NCBI RefSeq assembly: GCF_024296925.1
Contig: NZ_CP101125.1
Coordinates: 3,288,501 to 3,352,500, forward strand
Length of the DNA stretch: 64,000 bases
Source: Pseudomonas nunensis
Lineage (GTDB): Bacteria; Pseudomonadota; Gammaproteobacteria; Pseudomonadales; Pseudomonadaceae
Reading direction: 5' to 3'
How positions within the stretch are numbered: the stretch's first letter is position 1; every line of letters starts with the position of its first letter. A program made the translations under genes and the position numbers. Shown piece after piece: positions 19,664 to 30,334 of this stretch. The notes beneath the pieces are model-generated. The model saw nothing but the letters and a program-made list of their open reading frames with translations. It searched no databases and was not told the origin of the DNA.

Positions 19664-19858
19664 GGTGAAACTCCTGTAGAGACGGAGCCGTCCCGACCTG
19701 TCGCTAAACAAGTAAGGGTGGCGGCTGAACGCAGGTTAGCGAACCGGGTACAGGCACCCCGGTAGACCCCGAAGGTCTCCCGCGCACAGCCGCCAAAACA
19801 CAAATTGCAGACAAAGCTGCAATAGAGCTCGGAGTACTGTTGCGCCTGTATAGGATCC

Positions 19859-20184: not shown

Positions 20185-21105
20185 TTACGCACTGATCGAA
20201 GCAGCCAACCCCATCGCAACCAATTCTTTGCGCAAGATAGCCCGTTCAAAGACAAGCATCCCGGACTGACAACATACCTGCAGCAAATCGCTTAACTTCT
20301 GCTGACTGATAATAGGTCCCGCCAGAAAGTAACTCCTGCGCTCGCTAATACTGATGACATTCAGCAGCCAGTCATCCCCTTGTACCGCCAGCCATTCAGC
20401 GATCGTTTGACGATGCAGCTGAATCAATGCCTTGGCGTTCCACACCGTCATCTGCGCAAATACCTGAGGCAAACCTGTTTCCGGCTTCATCCGTTTCATG
20501 TCCGCCGCCAACGCTGCGGCAAGATCGGATTCGATCATCGACTGGCATTCGAGGAAATACAGTTCAGGCCAGTCTTCGGGCAGTTTGGCGTACCGCATCA
20601 GCGTCTCATACGCCCGGACATCCGCCTCAGTGACCTGTCGCCCGGTGAAGTTCATCGTGTTGTCGAGGATCGCCGTCGCCAGCAGGGCTGCGCTTTGCTC
20701 GCTGATTTGCGGCAATAACCCTGCCGCTTCCCAACGCTCAAACACCTGCGTCGCCGCAGCGCCAATCCGCCGAATGTCAGCGGCGCGGCCCAGTTTCTGC
20801 GTCCAGTAATGCTCGAAACCTGGATGGTGATCGATCACTTCCACGACCCGATCGAGCACCACCAGAGGATCGAAATGATCATAGTCAGAGACGTCCACCA
20901 GCACGAATTCATCGCCGGCCACGGGCAGGTAGTCGTCCAGGGTAACCGGCCAGTCGAGGACGGTTTTCGAGACACTGGCATTGGGCGCCGCGCTACTGAC
21001 CGCGCGCGCCGTGACGCCTTGAAGATTGAGCAATTCGGCATAGGCAATCGCGCAGGCGTACGCGTCAATATCCAGATAGGCCGAACCTGATGTGACCACT
21101 TTCAT
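20185..21105 (-). CDS. DHH family phosphoesterase in a selD operon
   Basis: The product has 306 residues. The DHH motif is IDHHPGFEHYW (Asp92-His93-His94). Further acidic ligands are visible in SAYLDIDAYACAIAYAELL (Asp12, Asp14) and LVDVSDYDHF (Asp71, Asp74), the layout of DHH exopolyphosphatases, pyrophosphatases and nanoRNases. A C-terminal DHHA domain is not obvious, so the substrate is open. The ATG overlaps the stop of the cysteine desulfurase by one base (TGATG), meaning tight coupling. The longer frame to 21201 only overlaps that gene. Association with selD and a desulfurase suggests a substrate that carries phosphate and perhaps selenium or sulfur; this is inference. Confidence 0.8.
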   Translation of the reverse strand: MKVVTSGSAYLDIDAYACAIAYAELLNLQGVTARAVSSAAPNASVSKTVLDWPVTLDDYLPVAGDEFVLVDVSDYDHFDPLVVLDRVVEVIDHHPGFEHYWTQKLGRAADIRRIGAAATQVFERWEAAGLLPQISEQSAALLATAILDNTMNFTGRQVTEADVRAYETLMRYAKLPEDWPELYFLECQSMIESDLAAALAADMKRMKPETGLPQVFAQMTVWNAKALIQLHRQTIAEWLAVQGDDWLLNVISISERRSYFLAGPIISQQKLSDLLQVCCQSGMLVFERAILRKELVAMGLAASISA

Positions 21106-22298
21106 CACAGTTGTGCCATCGATTGCTGTGGATGATCCGCGCAGGTCAGGCTTAGCGCTTGTGCGAAACCTTCGATAATCCGTTCGTAGGCAAATTGGCA
21201 ATGCTCTTCGTCAATGGAAATGCGCAACGTGCTACTGGCCATTCGCTCGGGGTATCCCAGTTGAGTGACAGTATGGGAAACACTGTTCTTTTTGTCGGAA
21301 CACGCCGACCCGGTAGTGATGTAGATCCCCCGGTTGTTCAACGCCCATTGCAACTTTTTGGTATTGACCCCTGGTAGTGCGACGAAGCTGACACACGGTA
21401 TGCGTGAGGCATGCTGGCCGATCACGACGACGTCACCAAGCAACGCTTGCAGCCGGCACTCGAACGCCGCTCGGGCCTGCTGAGCCAAGGCATTACCGAA
21501 TGAAAACTTGGTTTGCTTCTCCAAAAGTGCCGTTTCTATCGACAGGATACCTGGGTAGTTCTGGGTGCCACCGCGCAGCCCACCTTCCTGCCCACCGCCG
21601 GCGATCAGCGGCGACAAACCATAACGGTTCCTCGCGTACAGAAACCCGACACCAGGCAATGCGCCGAATTTATGTCCGGATGCAACAGCAAAATCGACGC
21701 CGCTGGCATGCAGATCTACCGCGATTTTGCCAATCGCCTGGGTCATGTCCGAGAAGAACAATCCACCGTAGGTCTTTACCAGATCGGCGATCGGCTCGAT
21801 GGGCTGAATCACCCCGGTTTCGTTATGCACCGCCATGACGCAAACCAGTATCGGACGACCCTCATGGGTTTCCAGCAACTGCTTCAATTGTTCGGTATCG
21901 AGCAATCCATCTGCGTGATGCCCGATTTCCAAGGCTTGCAGACCCTCCAGGCAGTAGCGCTTGATGTTCTGCAACGTACAGGAATGCTCGATCACAGAGT
22001 GGAGTACCAGCGGCTGGTCATGTTTATAGCGTTCGAAAAAGTCATGAAATACCTGCGCGCAACCTTCACTGGATCCACTGTTGAATATCAGGCAGTCGGC
22101 GTCGACGCTCAAGAGACTGGCAATCGTCCCGCGCGCCCGCTCCACACGCTCCAGCAAATGAACACCGAGGGCGTGATTGGCATTGGGGTTGGCGCATTGT
22201 TTTGTCGAAAACAACATTTGAAGCATGTCGCTTACACTCTTTGAAACCGGCGCCGAACCACACACATCGGCATAAATAGCATCCACAGCAATATCCAT
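21105..22298 (-). CDS. Cysteine desulfurase (NifS/IscS-like) in a selD operon
   Basis: A class V PLP aminotransferase-fold protein of 397 residues. The PLP lysine is in ASGHKFGALPGVGF (Lys210), the cofactor-contacting segment is AVHNETGVIQP, and the persulfide cysteine is in TTGSACSDKKNS (Cys333), so it should release sulfur from cysteine or selenium from selenocysteine. The N-terminus YADVCGSAPVS is unlike the usual YLDNAATTP, and it is not next to iscU, sufE or similar partners. ATG 22298 has GGAAG at good spacing; a GTG at 22307 is an alternative. It lies between a permease and a DHH gene, downstream of selD, and probably feeds the same pathway. Confidence 0.87.
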   Translation of the reverse strand: MDIAVDAIYADVCGSAPVSKSVSDMLQMLFSTKQCANPNANHALGVHLLERVERARGTIASLLSVDADCLIFNSGSSEGCAQVFHDFFERYKHDQPLVLHSVIEHSCTLQNIKRYCLEGLQALEIGHHADGLLDTEQLKQLLETHEGRPILVCVMAVHNETGVIQPIEPIADLVKTYGGLFFSDMTQAIGKIAVDLHASGVDFAVASGHKFGALPGVGFLYARNRYGLSPLIAGGGQEGGLRGGTQNYPGILSIETALLEKQTKFSFGNALAQQARAAFECRLQALLGDVVVIGQHASRIPCVSFVALPGVNTKKLQWALNNRGIYITTGSACSDKKNSVSHTVTQLGYPERMASSTLRISIDEEHCQFAYERIIEGFAQALSLTCADHPQQSMAQL

Positions 22299-22370
22299 AT
22301 CAAACACTTCCAGTTTTCTGTTTTATGTCATTCAGGATGCTGCTCGCACCAAGCGAGCAGTCAGTCTTTG

Positions 22371-23141
22371 CTAGAAAATTAAACGCGCCATGAGTTGGAC
22401 CGAACACAACAGAACGAACACGTTGAGTGCCCGTTTGAGGTGTCGTGAATCCAGGCGGTGCGACAGTGCTGCTCCCAGATAGCCCCCCAGCAATATCCCC
22501 ACCACCAATTCTGCGGTGTAGTCGAGGAAATCCATTTGTGAGCCCACCCTCCCGAGTAATGCACCACTGGCTCCGATGACGCCGATCACTGCGGAGGTCG
22601 AAATGGCTTGTTTGATCTGCAGGCCAAAAAGGCTGATCAGGACAGGCAGGTAAATGAACCCGCCGCCCTGACCGACCAAGCCACACAACACGCCCAGAAT
22701 CAAACCTGTCAGCGGTAACGACACGACCTGATGATTGCACAGTAAAGCCACCGGCCTGCGGAACAGGTACGTCACCATCAACGACATAAGTCCCAACAGG
22801 CCAAAAACGAACAGGATGAAGTTTTCACTGAAGGCATCGGCATGGATCGAAGCGAAGAAGTTAGCGATGGCCATCGGCACGGCGAAACTTCGGATCACTC
22901 GCCAATCGGGCCTAAACCTCACACGGTGCAGCGCGAACGACACCATTGAGGAGAAAAATCCCTGTGCCGAAGAGAGGCCGGTCACAACTTCAATCGGCAG
23001 TTTCTGACCGCCGAGCATCGGGTAAACAAGCACCAACAGAGGGGTCACAATGATCCCGCCGCCAATACCGAACAAACCCGACATGAAACCGGCCATCACG
23101 CCAACTCCGATCATCATCGGATAGACCGTCATGGCGACCAT
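22371..23141 (-). CDS. TauE/SafE family membrane permease in a selD operon
   Basis: A polytopic inner-membrane protein of 256 residues with about eight helices. The family's two inverted halves are each marked by a glycine-rich loop: GLFGIGGGIIVTPLL near residue 25 and GLVGQGGGFIYLPVL near residue 155. TauE/SafE proteins move sulfite, sulfoacetate and other small anions. The start overlaps the selD stop by one base (TAATG), so translation is coupled. A selenium- or sulfur-oxyanion substrate is plausible from context only. Confidence 0.88.
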   Translation of the reverse strand: MVAMTVYPMMIGVGVMAGFMSGLFGIGGGIIVTPLLVLVYPMLGGQKLPIEVVTGLSSAQGFFSSMVSFALHRVRFRPDWRVIRSFAVPMAIANFFASIHADAFSENFILFVFGLLGLMSLMVTYLFRRPVALLCNHQVVSLPLTGLILGVLCGLVGQGGGFIYLPVLISLFGLQIKQAISTSAVIGVIGASGALLGRVGSQMDFLDYTAELVVGILLGGYLGAALSHRLDSRHLKRALNVFVLLCSVQLMARLIF

Positions 23142-24190
23142 TAGCAGACCTTGATCTTGCCTGTCCCTTCAGTGATTTGCCCAATCACCGACAAGTCGGG
23201 GCAGATACTGCGCCAAGCTTGCTGGTTGGCCGCAAAACCGGCTGCACTGACGGTGAACAGCAATCCACCGTTGGTTTGCGGGTCATGCAACAAAAACTTC
23301 CTGGCAAGTGAAAGCTCGGCAAGGTATGCAATGTTTTGAGCATACTTTTTGATGTTGGCAAAGATGCCACTGTCAGCGGAAGTGACCGCGACAGCGAGTG
23401 CTTCGGCGCCGTCATAAAAGGCCAGGGTATTCATGTCCAGCGAAACGTCCAACTGGCCCAACCCGACCATTTCGCTGATATGGCCGATCAAGCCGAAACC
23501 GGTAATGTCGGTCAGGCTGCTGACGTCCTGACATTCGCTCAAAGTACGACCAAAGGCGTTGTCACCTGTAATCCGGGCCAACGTATGGGGGGCCAGATCA
23601 GATTGTTCCAGGACTCCAGCCTTCAGTGCATTCGCCAGAATGCCAACGCCCAGTGGTCGCGTCATGACCAGTAAATCGCCAGATTGCGCCGTGTTGTTTT
23701 TCTTGAGCCGATGCTTTTCAACTTCACCGATTATCGAAAAACCATATAAAGGCTGGCTGTTCTTGATCGTATGACCGCCTACGATGCTGACGCCGAATTT
23801 GTTCATAACCGACTGCGCGCCCAAAATCATCTGTGTCACCTGCTCGACCGAAACAACTTCCGGGTCGAAGGCCATGATCGAATTGGCGATCAGCGGATAA
23901 CCACCGGACGCAAAGATATCGCTGACGGCATTACTTGCAGCCAATTGGCCAAAAATATAGGGATCATTGACGATAGGGGAGAAATAATCTGTGGTGAAGA
24001 GCAGATAGTTATTGCCGTTGTCATAGACAGCGCAATCATCAGAAGACTCGAAACCCAACACAACTCTGTCATCAGATACCGTATTGGCCGCAGCCGTTTG
24101 CGAAAGTATTTTTGTTAAAACGCTGGAAGGAATCTTGCACCCGCATCCACCGCTTTCAGATTTATCCATAATCTGACAAGACATCGACAT
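23141..24190 (-). CDS. selD: Selenide, water dikinase SelD
   Basis: SelD makes selenophosphate from selenide and ATP. The 349-residue protein has the catalytic segment GGCGCKIPSSVL with Cys16 and Lys19 in the positions of the essential E. coli Cys17 and Lys20. It also has the ATP-binding TTDYFSPIVNDPYIFGQLAASNAVSDIFASGG region and DPQTNGGLLF near the C-terminus. ATG 24190 is preceded closely by AAGGAAG, and ATG 24184 is an alternative. It is first in a four-gene operon with permease, desulfurase and phosphoesterase genes, with no selA, selB, selU (mnmH) or selenoprotein gene nearby. It may therefore be a second, specialised copy. Confidence 0.92.
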   Translation of the reverse strand: MSMSCQIMDKSESGGCGCKIPSSVLTKILSQTAAANTVSDDRVVLGFESSDDCAVYDNGNNYLLFTTDYFSPIVNDPYIFGQLAASNAVSDIFASGGYPLIANSIMAFDPEVVSVEQVTQMILGAQSVMNKFGVSIVGGHTIKNSQPLYGFSIIGEVEKHRLKKNNTAQSGDLLVMTRPLGVGILANALKAGVLEQSDLAPHTLARITGDNAFGRTLSECQDVSSLTDITGFGLIGHISEMVGLGQLDVSLDMNTLAFYDGAEALAVAVTSADSGIFANIKKYAQNIAYLAELSLARKFLLHDPQTNGGLLFTVSAAGFAANQQAWRSICPDLSVIGQITEGTGKIKVC

Positions 24191-24488
24191 CACACTTCCT
24201 TAGCATCCATTTCCATATTTTCAACAGAGCATCCGCTCTGCCACTCGTGTTACCTGATATTTCAGGCAGGGCAAAATCGCACATCTTTATGACGTAAATG
24301 TGACAGCTAAAAGGGATGAGACGATGCCGATATCGCTTAGAAGGAAGCAGGAAGATTTGTGCGTTTCCATAAATTGCCCCGATAACTCGCCCACTCTGTT
24401 CTAAAGTTGATGAACACACCCGCCCGACTTCAAGCAGTGTCCGGCCCTGACTTTGTATGGAAACCCAGGCAGGTAAAGGAGACAGTCG

Positions 24489-25988
24489 ATGATTCTGGTC
24501 GCTCGCCCGTTGATCAGCCTTCCCTCGCAAAGAAGCACTGTGCGGCTTTGGGTCGGTTTGTTCGGTATCGAGAACCCGCAGGTGCCGACGTTTTTTCTGG
24601 GGGCGACGCCGGCCTCACAGGTCCCGGCTAACCCCGCGTCCGGGGAGAAGCTTTATCCAATCGACGATGGCGCAACGAATGCGGCGAAAAAACCGCTGAA
24701 CCATCAGGGCGTGTTTACCTTTGCCCGGTTGGGCGCGGGTATCAATCACTGTTTGCGCATCGTTGCCAACGGTGTCGAATACAGCCTCGCGTTTGTGTCC
24801 CAACCTGATGCGGTGCCGGCCAACGGCGCGCCGTTGAATGTTCTGCTGACGTCCTGTTACTACCAGCCCAATGGCGATGACAAGGCGCTGGAGAGCGCTG
24901 TCGCGCACCTGCCCTCCGGCTACAAGCCGCACCTGAGCCTGATGGTCGGCGATCAGGTTTACCTGGACGTGCCGGTGATTCCGTCCTGGCGTTTCAGCCT
25001 GGAAGGCGTGCAAAAGCTGATCGGCCAGAAGTATTACAAGAACTGGTGCTCCGACTCCTTGGGCACGGGCGGCCTGCAATCGGTGCTCCGGACCGCGCCG
25101 ACTGCTTGCATCCCGGACGATCACGAGTTCTGGAACAACTATCCCCTCGACCAGTTTCAACTGCCGCCGCTGGCCTTTGTCGACAAGCAGGACTGGTCTG
25201 ACACGGCGATGGATTTGTACGCCGGTTTCCAGTTGGGCGGGCCAGCGAAGACGCCGCAGGAGATTCCCGGTTTCCAGCGCATCGAGGTCGATCCGCTGAT
25301 CATTTTGCTGCTCGACACCCGGACCCGGCGCGACGACACCTTCAATCGCCTGATGCCCGACGATGCCGCGATGGCCCTGCAAAAATGGGCCGATGACCTG
25401 ATTCTGGCCAAGCAGAACAACGCACCCAAAGTCGGTGTGTTGTCGGCAGGCCAGCCGCTGTTTACCAAGCCGCCGGGGGACTTCAGCAAAAAATACGTCG
25501 ATGCCGACCTGGCCAACTATCAGCAATTCGAACTGATCGAGGTGCAACTTGAGCGGCTGGCCAGCCAGGGTATTCCGGTGGTGTTCCTGACCGGCGATGT
25601 GCACTGGAGTCGTGTGTGTGCGGCCCGCCACGGCTCGCAACCGACACCGATGTTGTACGAAGTGATCTGCTCGCCATCAACCATGATTCCCCGTGGCTCA
25701 CTGGCGAAAATCACCCTCGACACCCTGCGCGGCAAGGACTGGCCCGGTTACCCCGAAGCGCCGGAAGAAAAGGACCTGACGAACAAGTTCGGCAGCCGCA
25801 ACAGTTTCGTCGTGTCCTGCACCACCCAGGACAACTATTTCCAGTGCAACGGCAATCAGATTGCCGTGTTGCAGTTCACCCGATCAGGTTTTGGCCTGGA
25901 CATGAAAGTGACGTTTTTCGGGGTCAGCAACGACAGTCGACTCAAGCAACCCAAGTCCACCGCTAACTACCTCTTACGCTTTTATTGA
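24489..25988 (+). CDS. PhoD-like metallophosphoesterase
   Basis: The protein has 499 residues with the PhoD/alkaline phosphatase D metal-binding pattern: LLTSCYYQ, HLSLMVGDQVYLD, the CIPDDHEFWNNY box, LLLDTRTRR, and VFLTGDVHWSRV. No signal peptide or Tat motif is seen, so it is probably cytoplasmic, unlike secreted PhoD. AAAGGAGA precedes ATG 24489. The next gene starts 23 bases after its stop and is probably co-transcribed. The likely role is phosphodiester or phosphomonoester hydrolysis; the substrate is unknown. Confidence 0.85.
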   Translation: MILVARPLISLPSQRSTVRLWVGLFGIENPQVPTFFLGATPASQVPANPASGEKLYPIDDGATNAAKKPLNHQGVFTFARLGAGINHCLRIVANGVEYSLAFVSQPDAVPANGAPLNVLLTSCYYQPNGDDKALESAVAHLPSGYKPHLSLMVGDQVYLDVPVIPSWRFSLEGVQKLIGQKYYKNWCSDSLGTGGLQSVLRTAPTACIPDDHEFWNNYPLDQFQLPPLAFVDKQDWSDTAMDLYAGFQLGGPAKTPQEIPGFQRIEVDPLIILLLDTRTRRDDTFNRLMPDDAAMALQKWADDLILAKQNNAPKVGVLSAGQPLFTKPPGDFSKKYVDADLANYQQFELIEVQLERLASQGIPVVFLTGDVHWSRVCAARHGSQPTPMLYEVICSPSTMIPRGSLAKITLDTLRGKDWPGYPEAPEEKDLTNKFGSRNSFVVSCTTQDNYFQCNGNQIAVLQFTRSGFGLDMKVTFFGVSNDSRLKQPKSTANYLLRFY

Positions 25989-26011
25989 ATCGATCCGACA
26001 GGAGATCTGCC

Positions 26012-26776
26012 ATGGCGCACGCGCGCAACTCTTCGGCAAAGGATAAAAACCCGGATTTCGTACCGTTGAAACGCACCAAGCAGGAAGGCAATGACGCTTG
26101 GGTGCTGCGGGCGATTCAGAAGCTCGACCTGAACCCGAAAGAGTGGTCGTTCATCGCGCTGTTCGGCGCCATCGACATCCTCGCGTTCCGTCTCCGGGTG
26201 GCTCAATCACACTTGCGTAATGACCTGCTGCCTTCGTATTGGTCCGAGTCTGCATTTATCAACGTTGCACCGCGCTCGGCAGCCAAGACCACCGCGATCC
26301 ACGTGCCGTTGTTCCAGCCGGAACAGGCCGCGTTCGCGACCAAACGCAACGGCGTGGTGGAACAGCCCTTGAGCCATTTTGCCGATGCCACGCACTGGGA
26401 AAACGTCTGCGTGATTGCGCTGCCGGTGCCGCAACAGACCATTCGCGAGTCGATCAATCGCTTCCAGCATTCACGCTCGCCGGTCGATAGCCTGGAGCAT
26501 ATTCTGCGCTGGCTCGCCTACGCCTGGGGCGCCGATCGCACGCCAAACCCAATCCATGAAGGCATCGGCATGCCCGGCGCGACCATGCTCGAAGCGGTCT
26601 ACAACACGGCGCAATTCGACGTTACGCCGGGGCTGGAATCCCGGGCGGCGTGCCCGGAATACCTGTGGATCATGGCCAAGTATTGGTATCCGTATTACCA
26701 GCAACTGGGCACCCAACAGACACCTCGCGGGTTCTTCCATATCCAGCACACCTACGACATCAAGGAAACCCGCTGA
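26012..26776 (+). CDS. Hypothetical protein paired with PhoD-like gene
   Basis: This 254-residue protein is not recognised. ATG 26012 follows CAGGAGA; the frame is open to 25985, but that start lacks a site. The sequence is aromatic-rich, with tryptophans throughout and conserved-looking runs KEWSFIALFGAIDILAFRL, HWENVCVIALPV and CPEYLWIMAKYWYPYYQQLG. No signal peptide or strong transmembrane helix is seen. Its only visible clue is the close spacing to the PhoD-like gene, which suggests a functional pair. Confidence 0.7.
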   Translation: MAHARNSSAKDKNPDFVPLKRTKQEGNDAWVLRAIQKLDLNPKEWSFIALFGAIDILAFRLRVAQSHLRNDLLPSYWSESAFINVAPRSAAKTTAIHVPLFQPEQAAFATKRNGVVEQPLSHFADATHWENVCVIALPVPQQTIRESINRFQHSRSPVDSLEHILRWLAYAWGADRTPNPIHEGIGMPGATMLEAVYNTAQFDVTPGLESRAACPEYLWIMAKYWYPYYQQLGTQQTPRGFFHIQHTYDIKETR

Positions 26777-26828: not shown

Positions 26829-28112
26829 TCACACCGCGAGTTGACCGCTGGCAATCGCCGCCGACGCCGCCAGCATCGCCCGCAACAACACCGCACACCC
26901 GGCAGCCAGATCATCCGGCGCGGCGTTTTCGATTTCGTTGTGGCTGATCCCGCCTTCGCACGGCACGAAAATCATCCCGGCCGGACCGAGTTCGGCGACG
27001 AAGATTGCGTCATGCCCTGCCCCGCTGACGATGTCCATGTGTGACATGCCCAGCCCTTGCGCGGCGCCACGGACCGCGTCGACGCAACCCTTGTCGAAGT
27101 ACAGCGGCGGGAAGTCGGCGGTGGGGGTCAGTTCGTAAGTCAGGCCATGTGCTTCGCAGGTGGTTTCAATGACTGCGCGCACCTCGGCGATCATCGAATC
27201 CAGGCGCGCCGGTTCCAAGTGCCGGAAGTCGAGGGTCATGCGCACTTCGCCGGGGATGACGTTGCGTGAGCCGGGGTAGGCTTGCAGGCAACCGACGGTG
27301 CCGCAGGCGTGGGGTTGATGGCCGAGGGCGGCGCGATTGACCGCACCGACGATGACGGCGGCACCGACCAGGGCATCCTTGCGCAGGTGCATCGGCGTCG
27401 GGCCTGCGTGGGCTTCGACGCCGCGCAGTTTCAGGTCGAACCATTTCTGGCCGAGTGCGCCCATTACCACGCCGATGGTTTTGTGTTCGTCTTCGAGGAT
27501 CGGGCCTTGCTCGATGTGCGCCTCGAAATAGGCGCCGACGGCGTGGCCGCTGACCTTGCGTGGGCCGGCGTAGCCGATGGCGTTTAGCGCATCGCCAACG
27601 CTGACGCCCTCGGCATCGACTTTGGCCAGGGTTTCTTTAAGGGTGAATTTTTCCGCGAACACGCCGGAGCCCATCATGCACGGTGGGAAACGCGAGCCTT
27701 CTTCGTTGGTCCAGACCACCACTTCCAGCGGCGCTTCGGTTTCCACGCCAAGGTCATTGAGGGTGCGCAGCACTTCGACACCGGCCAGCACGCCGAAGCA
27801 GCCGTCGAACTTGCCGCCGGTGGGCTGGGTGTCGATGTGGCTGCCGGTCATGACCGGTGGCAGGTCGGGATTACGACCGGGGCGGCGAGCGAAGATGTTG
27901 CCGATGCCGTCGACGGTGACGGTGCAGCCGGCCTCTTCACACCAGTTGACGAAAATGTCCCGGGCCTGGCGGTCGAGGTCGGTCAGGGCCAGGCGACAGA
28001 CCCCACCCTTGACTGTGGCGCCGAGCTTGGCCAGTTCCATGAGCGACTGCCACAGGCGATCGCGGTTGATGTGCTGATGGGTGGATTGCAGAACGTCTAC
28101 GGCAGCGTTCAT
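26829..28112 (-). CDS. Zn-dependent N-carbamoyl amidohydrolase (beta-ureidopropionase type)
   Basis: An M20-family amidase of 427 residues of the hydantoinase/carbamoylase group. Metal-binding motifs visible are TGSHIDTQPTGGKFDGCFGVLAG (His and Asp ligands) and WTNEEGSRFPP (Glu ligands). A dimerisation-domain segment GVEAHAGPTPMHLRKDAL and a C-terminal GAGHDAIFVAELGPAGMIFVPCEGGISHNE follow. In the reductive pyrimidine pathway it hydrolyses N-carbamoyl-beta-alanine to beta-alanine, CO2 and ammonia. It is grouped with an NCS1 permease, dihydropyrimidinase and PreT/PreA, which supports this role over amino-acid carbamoylase. GAGGAGA precedes the ATG. Confidence 0.9.
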   Translation of the reverse strand: MNAAVDVLQSTHQHINRDRLWQSLMELAKLGATVKGGVCRLALTDLDRQARDIFVNWCEEAGCTVTVDGIGNIFARRPGRNPDLPPVMTGSHIDTQPTGGKFDGCFGVLAGVEVLRTLNDLGVETEAPLEVVVWTNEEGSRFPPCMMGSGVFAEKFTLKETLAKVDAEGVSVGDALNAIGYAGPRKVSGHAVGAYFEAHIEQGPILEDEHKTIGVVMGALGQKWFDLKLRGVEAHAGPTPMHLRKDALVGAAVIVGAVNRAALGHQPHACGTVGCLQAYPGSRNVIPGEVRMTLDFRHLEPARLDSMIAEVRAVIETTCEAHGLTYELTPTADFPPLYFDKGCVDAVRGAAQGLGMSHMDIVSGAGHDAIFVAELGPAGMIFVPCEGGISHNEIENAAPDDLAAGCAVLLRAMLAASAAIASGQLAV

Positions 28113-30165: not shown

Positions 30166-30334
30166 GTGATTTGTGTTTTTTATCGTTAGTTATCAACGTG
30201 TTATTAACTATATAAGCTTATAAAAAATAATCTTGCTCATTCGATCAACACCAGCTAGCGTCTATTCTTGACAGCGCTGACAGGAATACACCTGTTTGCA
30301 TCAGCTTCATATAAAACATTTAGAACTGGCATAA

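What the first reader, a model, noticed from the sequence alone, without database searches (positions are those of the whole stretch)
20185..24190. selD operon with permease, cysteine desulfurase and DHH phosphoesterase
SelD keeps its catalytic Cys and Lys. The genes are coupled by one-base overlaps (selD-permease, desulfurase-DHH), so the four products probably act together. None of the standard selenium-use genes (selA, selB, mnmH, or a selenoprotein) is present, nor is a selenoneine-type glycosyltransferase. A desulfurase could deliver selenide, SelD would make selenophosphate, a TauE/SafE permease could move an anion, and the DHH enzyme would act on a phosphorylated product. I know of no described pathway with this composition.
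Basis: partly seen in the sequence, partly recalled or inferred. Interest (0 to 1): 0.8.

Follow-up and report, generated by a model that had tools for sequence, protein, structure and literature searches.

The report
Second selenophosphate operon with phosphate-type promoter
A few Pseudomonas bacteria carry a second, separate set of selenium-activating genes whose promoter looks like a phosphate-starvation switch, hinting at an undescribed link between selenium handling and phosphate hunger.

Summary
The four genes are real, intact and operonic: SelD2 (catalytic Cys and Lys kept), a TauE/SafE permease, a NifS/IscS-type desulfurase and a DHH hydrolase with a family II pyrophosphatase fold. The Pseudomonas genome also has a canonical selD-mnmH pair, selA, selB and a formate dehydrogenase locus, so SelD2 is an extra copy.

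SelD2 and its desulfurase hit the same 6 of 398 Pseudomonas genomes, always with all four genes in the same order. Two of the six lack selB.

Two findings change the picture. First, DHH is separable: of 20 DHH genomes among 199, 19 have no intact selD2/csd beside it, and in two of these csd remnants (one also a selD remnant) still lie before an intact DHH gene. Second, a PHO-box-like repeat precedes selD2, and similar repeats precede many lone DHH genes: at least 12 of 14 matches in 15 of 26 regions, against 0 of 409 control ORFs. The genome's own pstS scores 12.

Best reading: a phosphate-starvation-inducible second selenophosphate module of unknown end product. A desulfurase-like gene near selD in orphan-SelD genomes was already published.

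The parts
23141..24190 (-). selD2, second selenophosphate synthetase (349 aa; GTG 24193 is an alternative start)
   Evidence: TIGR00476 295 bits, over the cut-off of 125; GGCGCKI kept; separate clade from the canonical Pseudomonas SelD
22371..23141 (-). TauE/SafE-family permease (256 aa)
   Evidence: PF01925 134 bits; present in all six operons, 85-87% identical in the other five; no solved relative by sequence at E 0.1
21105..22307 (-). NifS/IscS-type cysteine desulfurase or selenocysteine lyase-like enzyme (400 aa)
   Evidence: PF00266 159 bits; best solved match 1ecx, with the PLP lysine (SGHKF) and loop cysteine (GSACSD) aligned (residue roles from family knowledge)
20185..21108 (-). DHH hydrolase, family II pyrophosphatase / exopolyphosphatase fold (start GTG 21108 or ATG 21105)
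24289..24306 (-). PHO-box-like direct repeat CTGTCAC-ATTT-ACGTCAT, 12 of 14 consensus matches
   Evidence: footprint GTCAYATTT shared by seven selD2 promoters, one of them of a decayed operon
24270..24283 (-). TGTGCGATTTTGCC just downstream of the box, possible -10 region; variants of it recur upstream of many lone DHH genes
26829..28112 (-). hydantoinase/carbamoylase-family amidase; marks the chromosomal site shared by four of the six operons (here with two other genes in between) and twelve lone DHH genes
   Evidence: TIGR01879 444 bits, cut-off 204; neighbourhoods

Best explanation
The operon is a dedicated second selenophosphate module under phosphate-starvation (PhoB-type) control. Proposed working: PhoB-phosphate binds the direct repeat upstream of selD2 (inferred). 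The desulfurase releases selenium from selenocysteine or a related donor (inferred from the kept lysine and loop cysteine). SelD2 turns selenide and ATP into selenophosphate (inferred from the kept Cys and Lys and the conserved Asp residues in the alignment with E. coli SelD). The TauE/SafE protein moves an anion of this chemistry, selenite, sulfite or the product, across the membrane (family-level inference). The DHH enzyme is a phosphohydrolase, probably also of the phosphate-starvation set, that stands last in the operon and can outlive the other three genes. The most likely use is selenium handling when phosphate transporters are induced and selenite enters with phosphate. Shown here: gene content, conserved order, second-copy status, purifying selection, loss of the selenium genes with DHH retained, and the promoter repeat. 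Not shown: any activity, PhoB binding, or the end product.
For: Same four genes, same order, in 6 of 398 Pseudomonas genomes; SelD2 at E up to 1e-75 and desulfurase at E up to 1e-100 hit exactly the same six. All six also have canonical selD followed by mnmH. selB is over cut-off in own and in G230, G372, G346 but not in the operon genomes G295 and G359. SelD2 forms a clade apart from SelD1, SH-aLRT 100. dN/dS 0.05-0.26 for the four genes in four operon pairs (two of these pairs have saturated dS) and 0.14-0.22 for DHH in six pairs from genomes without an intact operon. PHO-box-like repeat at least 12/14 in 15 of 26 regions: 4 of 6 selD2 promoters, 11 of 19 DHH upstream regions, 0 of 1 selD remnant; controls 0 of 409 other mechanically called ORFs and 3 of 2600 dinucleotide shuffles. 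pstS of the same genome scores 12 and the unidentified gene after it 13. Two decaying operons, L027 and L028, with DHH intact. In yeast selenite enters through phosphate transporters (PMC5020356, passages).
Against: No experiment. The box was noticed first and scored afterwards, and the 26 regions are related by descent. Eleven of 26 score below 12: selD2 promoters L053 (11, at another place) and L056; DHH upstream regions L027, L028, L030 (9), L032, L033, L035, L042, L045; the L028 selD remnant. The best sites of L027 and L028 lie 4 bases before DHH, in csd remains. The consensus is the E. coli one. Other genes matched by the PstS family model in this genome score 11 or less. A second site scoring 12 precedes the window's DHH gene inside csd and is probably chance, and a third lies elsewhere in the window, with 1.6 expected per window by mononucleotide shuffle. 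Making selenophosphate costs ATP phosphate, which sits oddly with phosphate starvation. The selenite-entry idea rests on yeast. Selenium specificity of SelD2 and of the desulfurase is inferred.
Confidence: 0.45

Rival explanations
1. A conventional isozyme pair: desulfurase and SelD2 form a selenocysteine-recycling route that feeds selenophosphate to the ordinary users MnmH and, where present, SelA, while SelD1 handles inorganic selenium. The permease and the DHH enzyme are accessory.
For: All six operon genomes keep a canonical selD followed by mnmH, so a user of selenophosphate is always present. No acceptor enzyme lies in the operon.
Against: Only 6 of 398 genomes have it. It does not track selB. 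A PHO-type promoter is not explained.
Confidence: 0.25
2. A new small-molecule selenium pathway: selenophosphate or a product made from it is the end metabolite, and the permease exports or imports it.
For: Dedicated SelD clade always joined to the same desulfurase and permease in the six genomes found; independent of selB.
Against: No transferase or other selenium acceptor was seen in the operon or conserved beside it; no metabolite known.
Confidence: 0.2
3. The operon acts on sulfur: desulfurase sulfur goes to SelD2, which makes thiophosphate or serves another sulfur transfer, and the permease moves sulfite or a sulfonate.
For: Both the desulfurase and the TauE/SafE family are mainly sulfur families (family knowledge).
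Against: SelD2 keeps the Cys and Lys of selenide-using enzymes and aligns over nearly its whole length with E. coli SelD 3u0o, including the conserved Asp residues (roles recalled).
Confidence: 0.1

Closest known systems
Canonical SelD with MnmH (selenouridine) and SelA/SelB (selenocysteine)
   Same: SelD family, catalytic Cys and Lys; both systems are in this genome
   Different: SelD2 is 36-38% identical to the canonical SelD of ten Pseudomonas genomes and lies in an operon without mnmH, selA or selB
Orphan SelD genomes with a neighbouring desulfurase-like gene (PMC5029168, ISME J 2016)
   Same: selD close to a pfam00266 desulfurase-like gene; Pseudomonas tolaasii 6264 is on their list
   Different: This genome is not an orphan genome. 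Permease, DHH gene, promoter and decay were not in the passages read; their Supplementary Figure S1 was not seen
Selenoneine cluster senA-senB-senC(selD) (recalled; only starts of abstracts seen in the listing)
   Same: a SelD dedicated to something other than Sec and selenouridine
   Different: no glycosyltransferase among the eight genes scanned
Family II inorganic pyrophosphatase and yeast exopolyphosphatase PPX1
   Different: motif I His is Ser or Ala, and the late metal Asp position reads Asn with Asp one place before (ligand roles recalled); below the family cut-off
Pho regulon of Proteobacteria
   Same: 7-4-7 direct repeat close to CTGTCAT (definition in PMC4415409, passages), as before pstS here
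   Different: no selenium operon in it appeared in searches (no paper; 15 of 77 papers listed)

Membership tests
SelD (TIGR00476) | score over the curated cut-off | tested here: met
   295 bits against 125
SelD (TIGR00476) | catalytic Cys and Lys near the N-terminus | tested here: met
   GGCGCKI in all six operon SelD2
SelD (TIGR00476) | selenophosphate made from selenide and ATP | not testable with these tools
   needs enzyme assay
Group I cysteine desulfurase (NifS/IscS type) | PLP lysine and loop cysteine | tested here: met
   alignment with 1ecx
NifS or IscS equivalog | score over the equivalog cut-off | tested here: not met
   216 against 530.75 (NifS) and 171.8 against 643.2 (IscS)
TauE/SafE (PF01925) | score over the Pfam cut-off | tested here: met
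   134.4 against 32.6
Family II inorganic pyrophosphatase | two-domain DHH fold over the whole length | tested here: met
Family II inorganic pyrophosphatase | score over the equivalog cut-off and motif I His metal ligand | tested here: not met
   57.2 against 283 bits; His replaced by Ser or Ala in 13 of 13 (ligand role recalled)
Orphan SelD trait | genome lacks Sec and selenouridine genes | tested here: not met
   selA, selB, mnmH present
Pho regulon | PHO box upstream | tested here: met
   12 of 14 at 24306-24289; 15 of 26 homologous regions at 12 or more against 0 of 409 control ORFs and 3 of 2600 dinucleotide shuffles
Pho regulon | PhoB-dependent induction in low phosphate | not testable with these tools
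   needs expression data
Selenoneine cluster | SenB-type glycosyltransferase and SenA | not tested
   only the eight genes at and near the operon were scanned, none a glycosyltransferase; genome-wide search not done

The most novel reading that the evidence does not exclude
A further SelD-dependent use of selenium that belongs to the bacterial phosphate-starvation response: PhoB switches on a dedicated selenophosphate-making operon whose product, or whose removal of selenide, matters only when phosphate is scarce and selenite enters through phosphate transporters.
Probability: 0.3. Interest if true: 0.85.

Novelty: new variant of a known kind. Interest (0 to 1): 0.6.

Why it matters
What SelD does outside selenocysteine, selenouridine, the molybdenum-hydroxylase cofactor and selenoneine is open. 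Here is an operon with a second SelD in genomes that already have a SelD for the standard uses, which weakens the usual objection that SelD simply serves them. The promoter gives a concrete growth condition, low phosphate, under which to look. If right, it ties selenium handling to phosphate limitation in bacteria. The decayed copies also show that the DHH gene, found in about a tenth of the Pseudomonas genomes sampled and named pyrophosphatase or NrnA in databases, has a function of its own, and in 11 of 19 genomes it has a PHO-type site of its own.

Tried and rejected
Five of the 19 were also searched whole for SelD2 and gave canonical-type SelD or weaker hits only, and none of the 19 is among the hits.

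Canonical function only: rejected as the simple reading, since selD1-mnmH exists in all six operon genomes.

Chance gene order: rejected. NrnA/PAP-phosphatase naming of the DHH gene by databases: not favoured, as solved NrnA chains align over about 174-184 residues or with rmsd of about 11 over the whole length, against 296 residues at 3.6 A for a pyrophosphatase.

My first PHO control counted 1 of 297 ORFs at 12 or more; on checking, that one was selD2 itself, so the clean control, with the four genes and DHH left out, is the one given. G070 was first read as a contig edge; the contig runs on and the locus is a decayed operon. P0042, a short metagenome ORF joining SelD and desulfurase parts, looks like a deletion or assembly join and was dropped.

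Relatives outside Pseudomonas: SelD2 relatives at about 50% in Pseudoalteromonas luteoviolacea and Photobacterium and a desulfurase relative at 44% in P. luteoviolacea could not be seen in context. A 369-genome class sample held none but the own genome; a 16S pattern meant to find Pseudoalteromonas found nothing; plasmid searches gave no DHH or desulfurase match and SelD matches under 60% identity only (149 records, 40 listed). The single genome-contig scan gave three Pseudomonas DHH loci; L024 has the length of L029 and looks like the same contig, while L025 and L026 were not analysed. Rfam gave no riboswitch at the operon. The divergent PhoD-like gene has no box scoring over 9.

Literature: searches; the larger answers were seen only in their listed part (20 of 64, 20 of 189, 15 of 24, 2 of 3, 15 of 77). 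No paper with this four-gene operon or with a PHO-controlled selD appeared in what was listed; most subscription papers are not in that library. Papers opened: PMC5029168 (passages and the whole of section 12); PMC5322559, PMC4415409, PMC5020356 and PMC10418091 (passages). Others were seen only as listings.

Full report
What is there. On the minus strand the window carries selD (24190-23141), a TauE/SafE permease (23141-22371), a NifS/IscS-type desulfurase (22307-21105) and a DHH-family gene (21108 or 21105 to 20185). SelD scores 295 bits against the cut-off of 125 and keeps GGCGCKI. The selD-permease pair overlaps by one base. The desulfurase-DHH pair overlaps by one base with the ATG start or four with the GTG start. 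A 63-base gap lies between permease and desulfurase.

Host genome. The window lies in a 7.3-Mb single-contig genome; it is Pseudomonas by its named close matches. TIGR00476 finds two SelD over the cut-off: the canonical one, followed by MnmH, and the operon's. selA, selB and a formate dehydrogenase gene set lie together at 2.6 Mb; whether the dehydrogenase has a Sec codon was not checked. So SelD2 is not the only copy.

Conservation. SelD2 at E up to 1e-75 is found in 6 of 398 Pseudomonas genomes. The desulfurase at E up to 1e-100 is found in 6 of 398, the same six. In each the order is selD-tauE-csd-dhh on one strand, with identities to the window of 81-86, 85-87, 75-81 and 65-71 percent. In three of the six (L054, L055, L057) selD directly follows a hydantoinase/carbamoylase gene; in the window that gene stands in the same place with two other genes in between; in two (L053, L056) the operon lies elsewhere. 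In 369 genomes of the class only the own genome matched. More distant SelD2 relatives are in Pseudoalteromonas luteoviolacea and Photobacterium, and a desulfurase relative in the former. In a quick tree of 74 SelD rows, SelD2 with these relatives is apart from SelD1. selB is over the cut-off in four of six genomes tested (G230, G372, G346 and the decayed G070) and in own, but not in the operon genomes G295 and G359. The operon therefore does not follow selenocysteine decoding.

The DHH gene is separable. DHH homologues occur in 20 of 199 Pseudomonas genomes, own included. The other 19 have no intact selD2 or csd in the 11-20 kb fetched around the gene, and none of them is among the hits. In twelve of the 19 the gene directly follows the same hydantoinase/carbamoylase gene. 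Two of the 19 show the operon in decay. L028 has the selD promoter, about 20 selD codons with the Cys and Lys of the motif changed, and two pieces of csd, before an intact DHH gene. L027 has part of the selD leader and pieces of csd. In the DHH tree of 25 rows, operon and lone genes are mixed: four changes, at least three forced by well-supported branches (L028 counted with the operon group; several branches are weak and some rows have long branches). dN/dS for DHH is 0.14-0.22 in six pairs from genomes without an intact operon and 0.08-0.26 in four operon pairs, two of which have saturated dS for some genes. So the three selenium-type genes can be lost while DHH keeps working on its own.

Promoter. 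Upstream of selD2, at 24306-24289 on the minus strand, stands CTGTCAC-ATTT-ACGTCAT, a 7-4-7 direct repeat like the PHO box (definition in PMC4415409, passages). Best score in 350 bases against CTGTCAY-N4-CTGTCAY: at least 12 of 14 in 15 of 26 regions, made up of 4 of 6 selD2 promoters, 11 of 19 DHH upstream regions and 0 of 1 selD remnant. Controls: 0 of 409 other mechanically called ORFs and 3 of 2600 dinucleotide shuffles of the same regions; 0.23 percent of 5200 mononucleotide shuffles. A first control of 297 ORFs held one hit, which was selD2 itself. In the window two of 56 called genes reach 12: selD2, and DHH by a site inside csd that is probably chance; one further site lies at 30326. 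The same genome's pstS (TIGR02136 over cut-off) scores 12, and the next gene, for which no NCBIfam match was found, 13; the spacers CCAA and ATTT of the pstS site recur at lone DHH genes and at selD2. Other genes at PstS-family places score 11 or less. Seven selD2 promoters share GTCAYATTT and TGCGA. Against: L053 and L056 score 11 (elsewhere) and 10; the box was seen before it was scored; the sequences are related.

How it may work. PhoB-type activation in low phosphate, selenium release by the desulfurase, selenophosphate made by SelD2, anion movement by the permease, and a phosphohydrolase, DHH, as the last gene. In yeast, selenite enters through phosphate transporters; the paper's introduction names Pho84 at low phosphate, though its own mutants showed no role for Pho84 under the conditions used (PMC5020356, passages). 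A cell inducing phosphate uptake may thus need to deal with selenide. All activities are inferred. Rivals: a recycling isozyme for MnmH/SelA, a new selenium metabolite, or sulfur chemistry.

Prior work. PMC5029168 (section 12) reported at least 26 orphan-SelD organisms, among them P. tolaasii 6264, and named a desulfurase-like gene as one of three SelD neighbours, each in at least three organisms of different phyla. Seen against that, what is new here is the fixed four-gene operon, its place in genomes that already have a canonical selD-mnmH, the PHO-type promoter, and the stepwise loss with DHH kept. Searches listed no paper with these, within the listed part of each answer.

Noticed in passing
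window 19714-19800 (-): Rfam C4 antisense RNA (RF01695), 67 bits, beyond the 3' end of the DHH gene.
   Followed up: no
window 24489-25988 (+) and 25985-26776 (+): A PhoD-like phosphatase (26.4 bits, just under the Pfam cut-off of 27) and a 263-aa protein without a Pfam or NCBIfam match stand divergent to selD2; among the six operons only this one has them beside it.
   Followed up: partly
L027:7898-7980: An 83-base piece similar to part of the DHH gene lies about 1.8 kb from the intact one, a further trace of rearrangement.
   Followed up: no
P0042 (metagenome protein): 358-aa ORF joining the C-terminal half of SelD2 to the C-terminal half of the desulfurase, without the permease.
   Followed up: partly
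names and the list: Close desulfurase relatives occur in Pseudomonas gingeri and P. asplenii, and P. tolaasii 6264 is on the published orphan-SelD list; P. gingeri and P. tolaasii are mushroom-associated (recalled), which may be a habitat hint.
   Followed up: no
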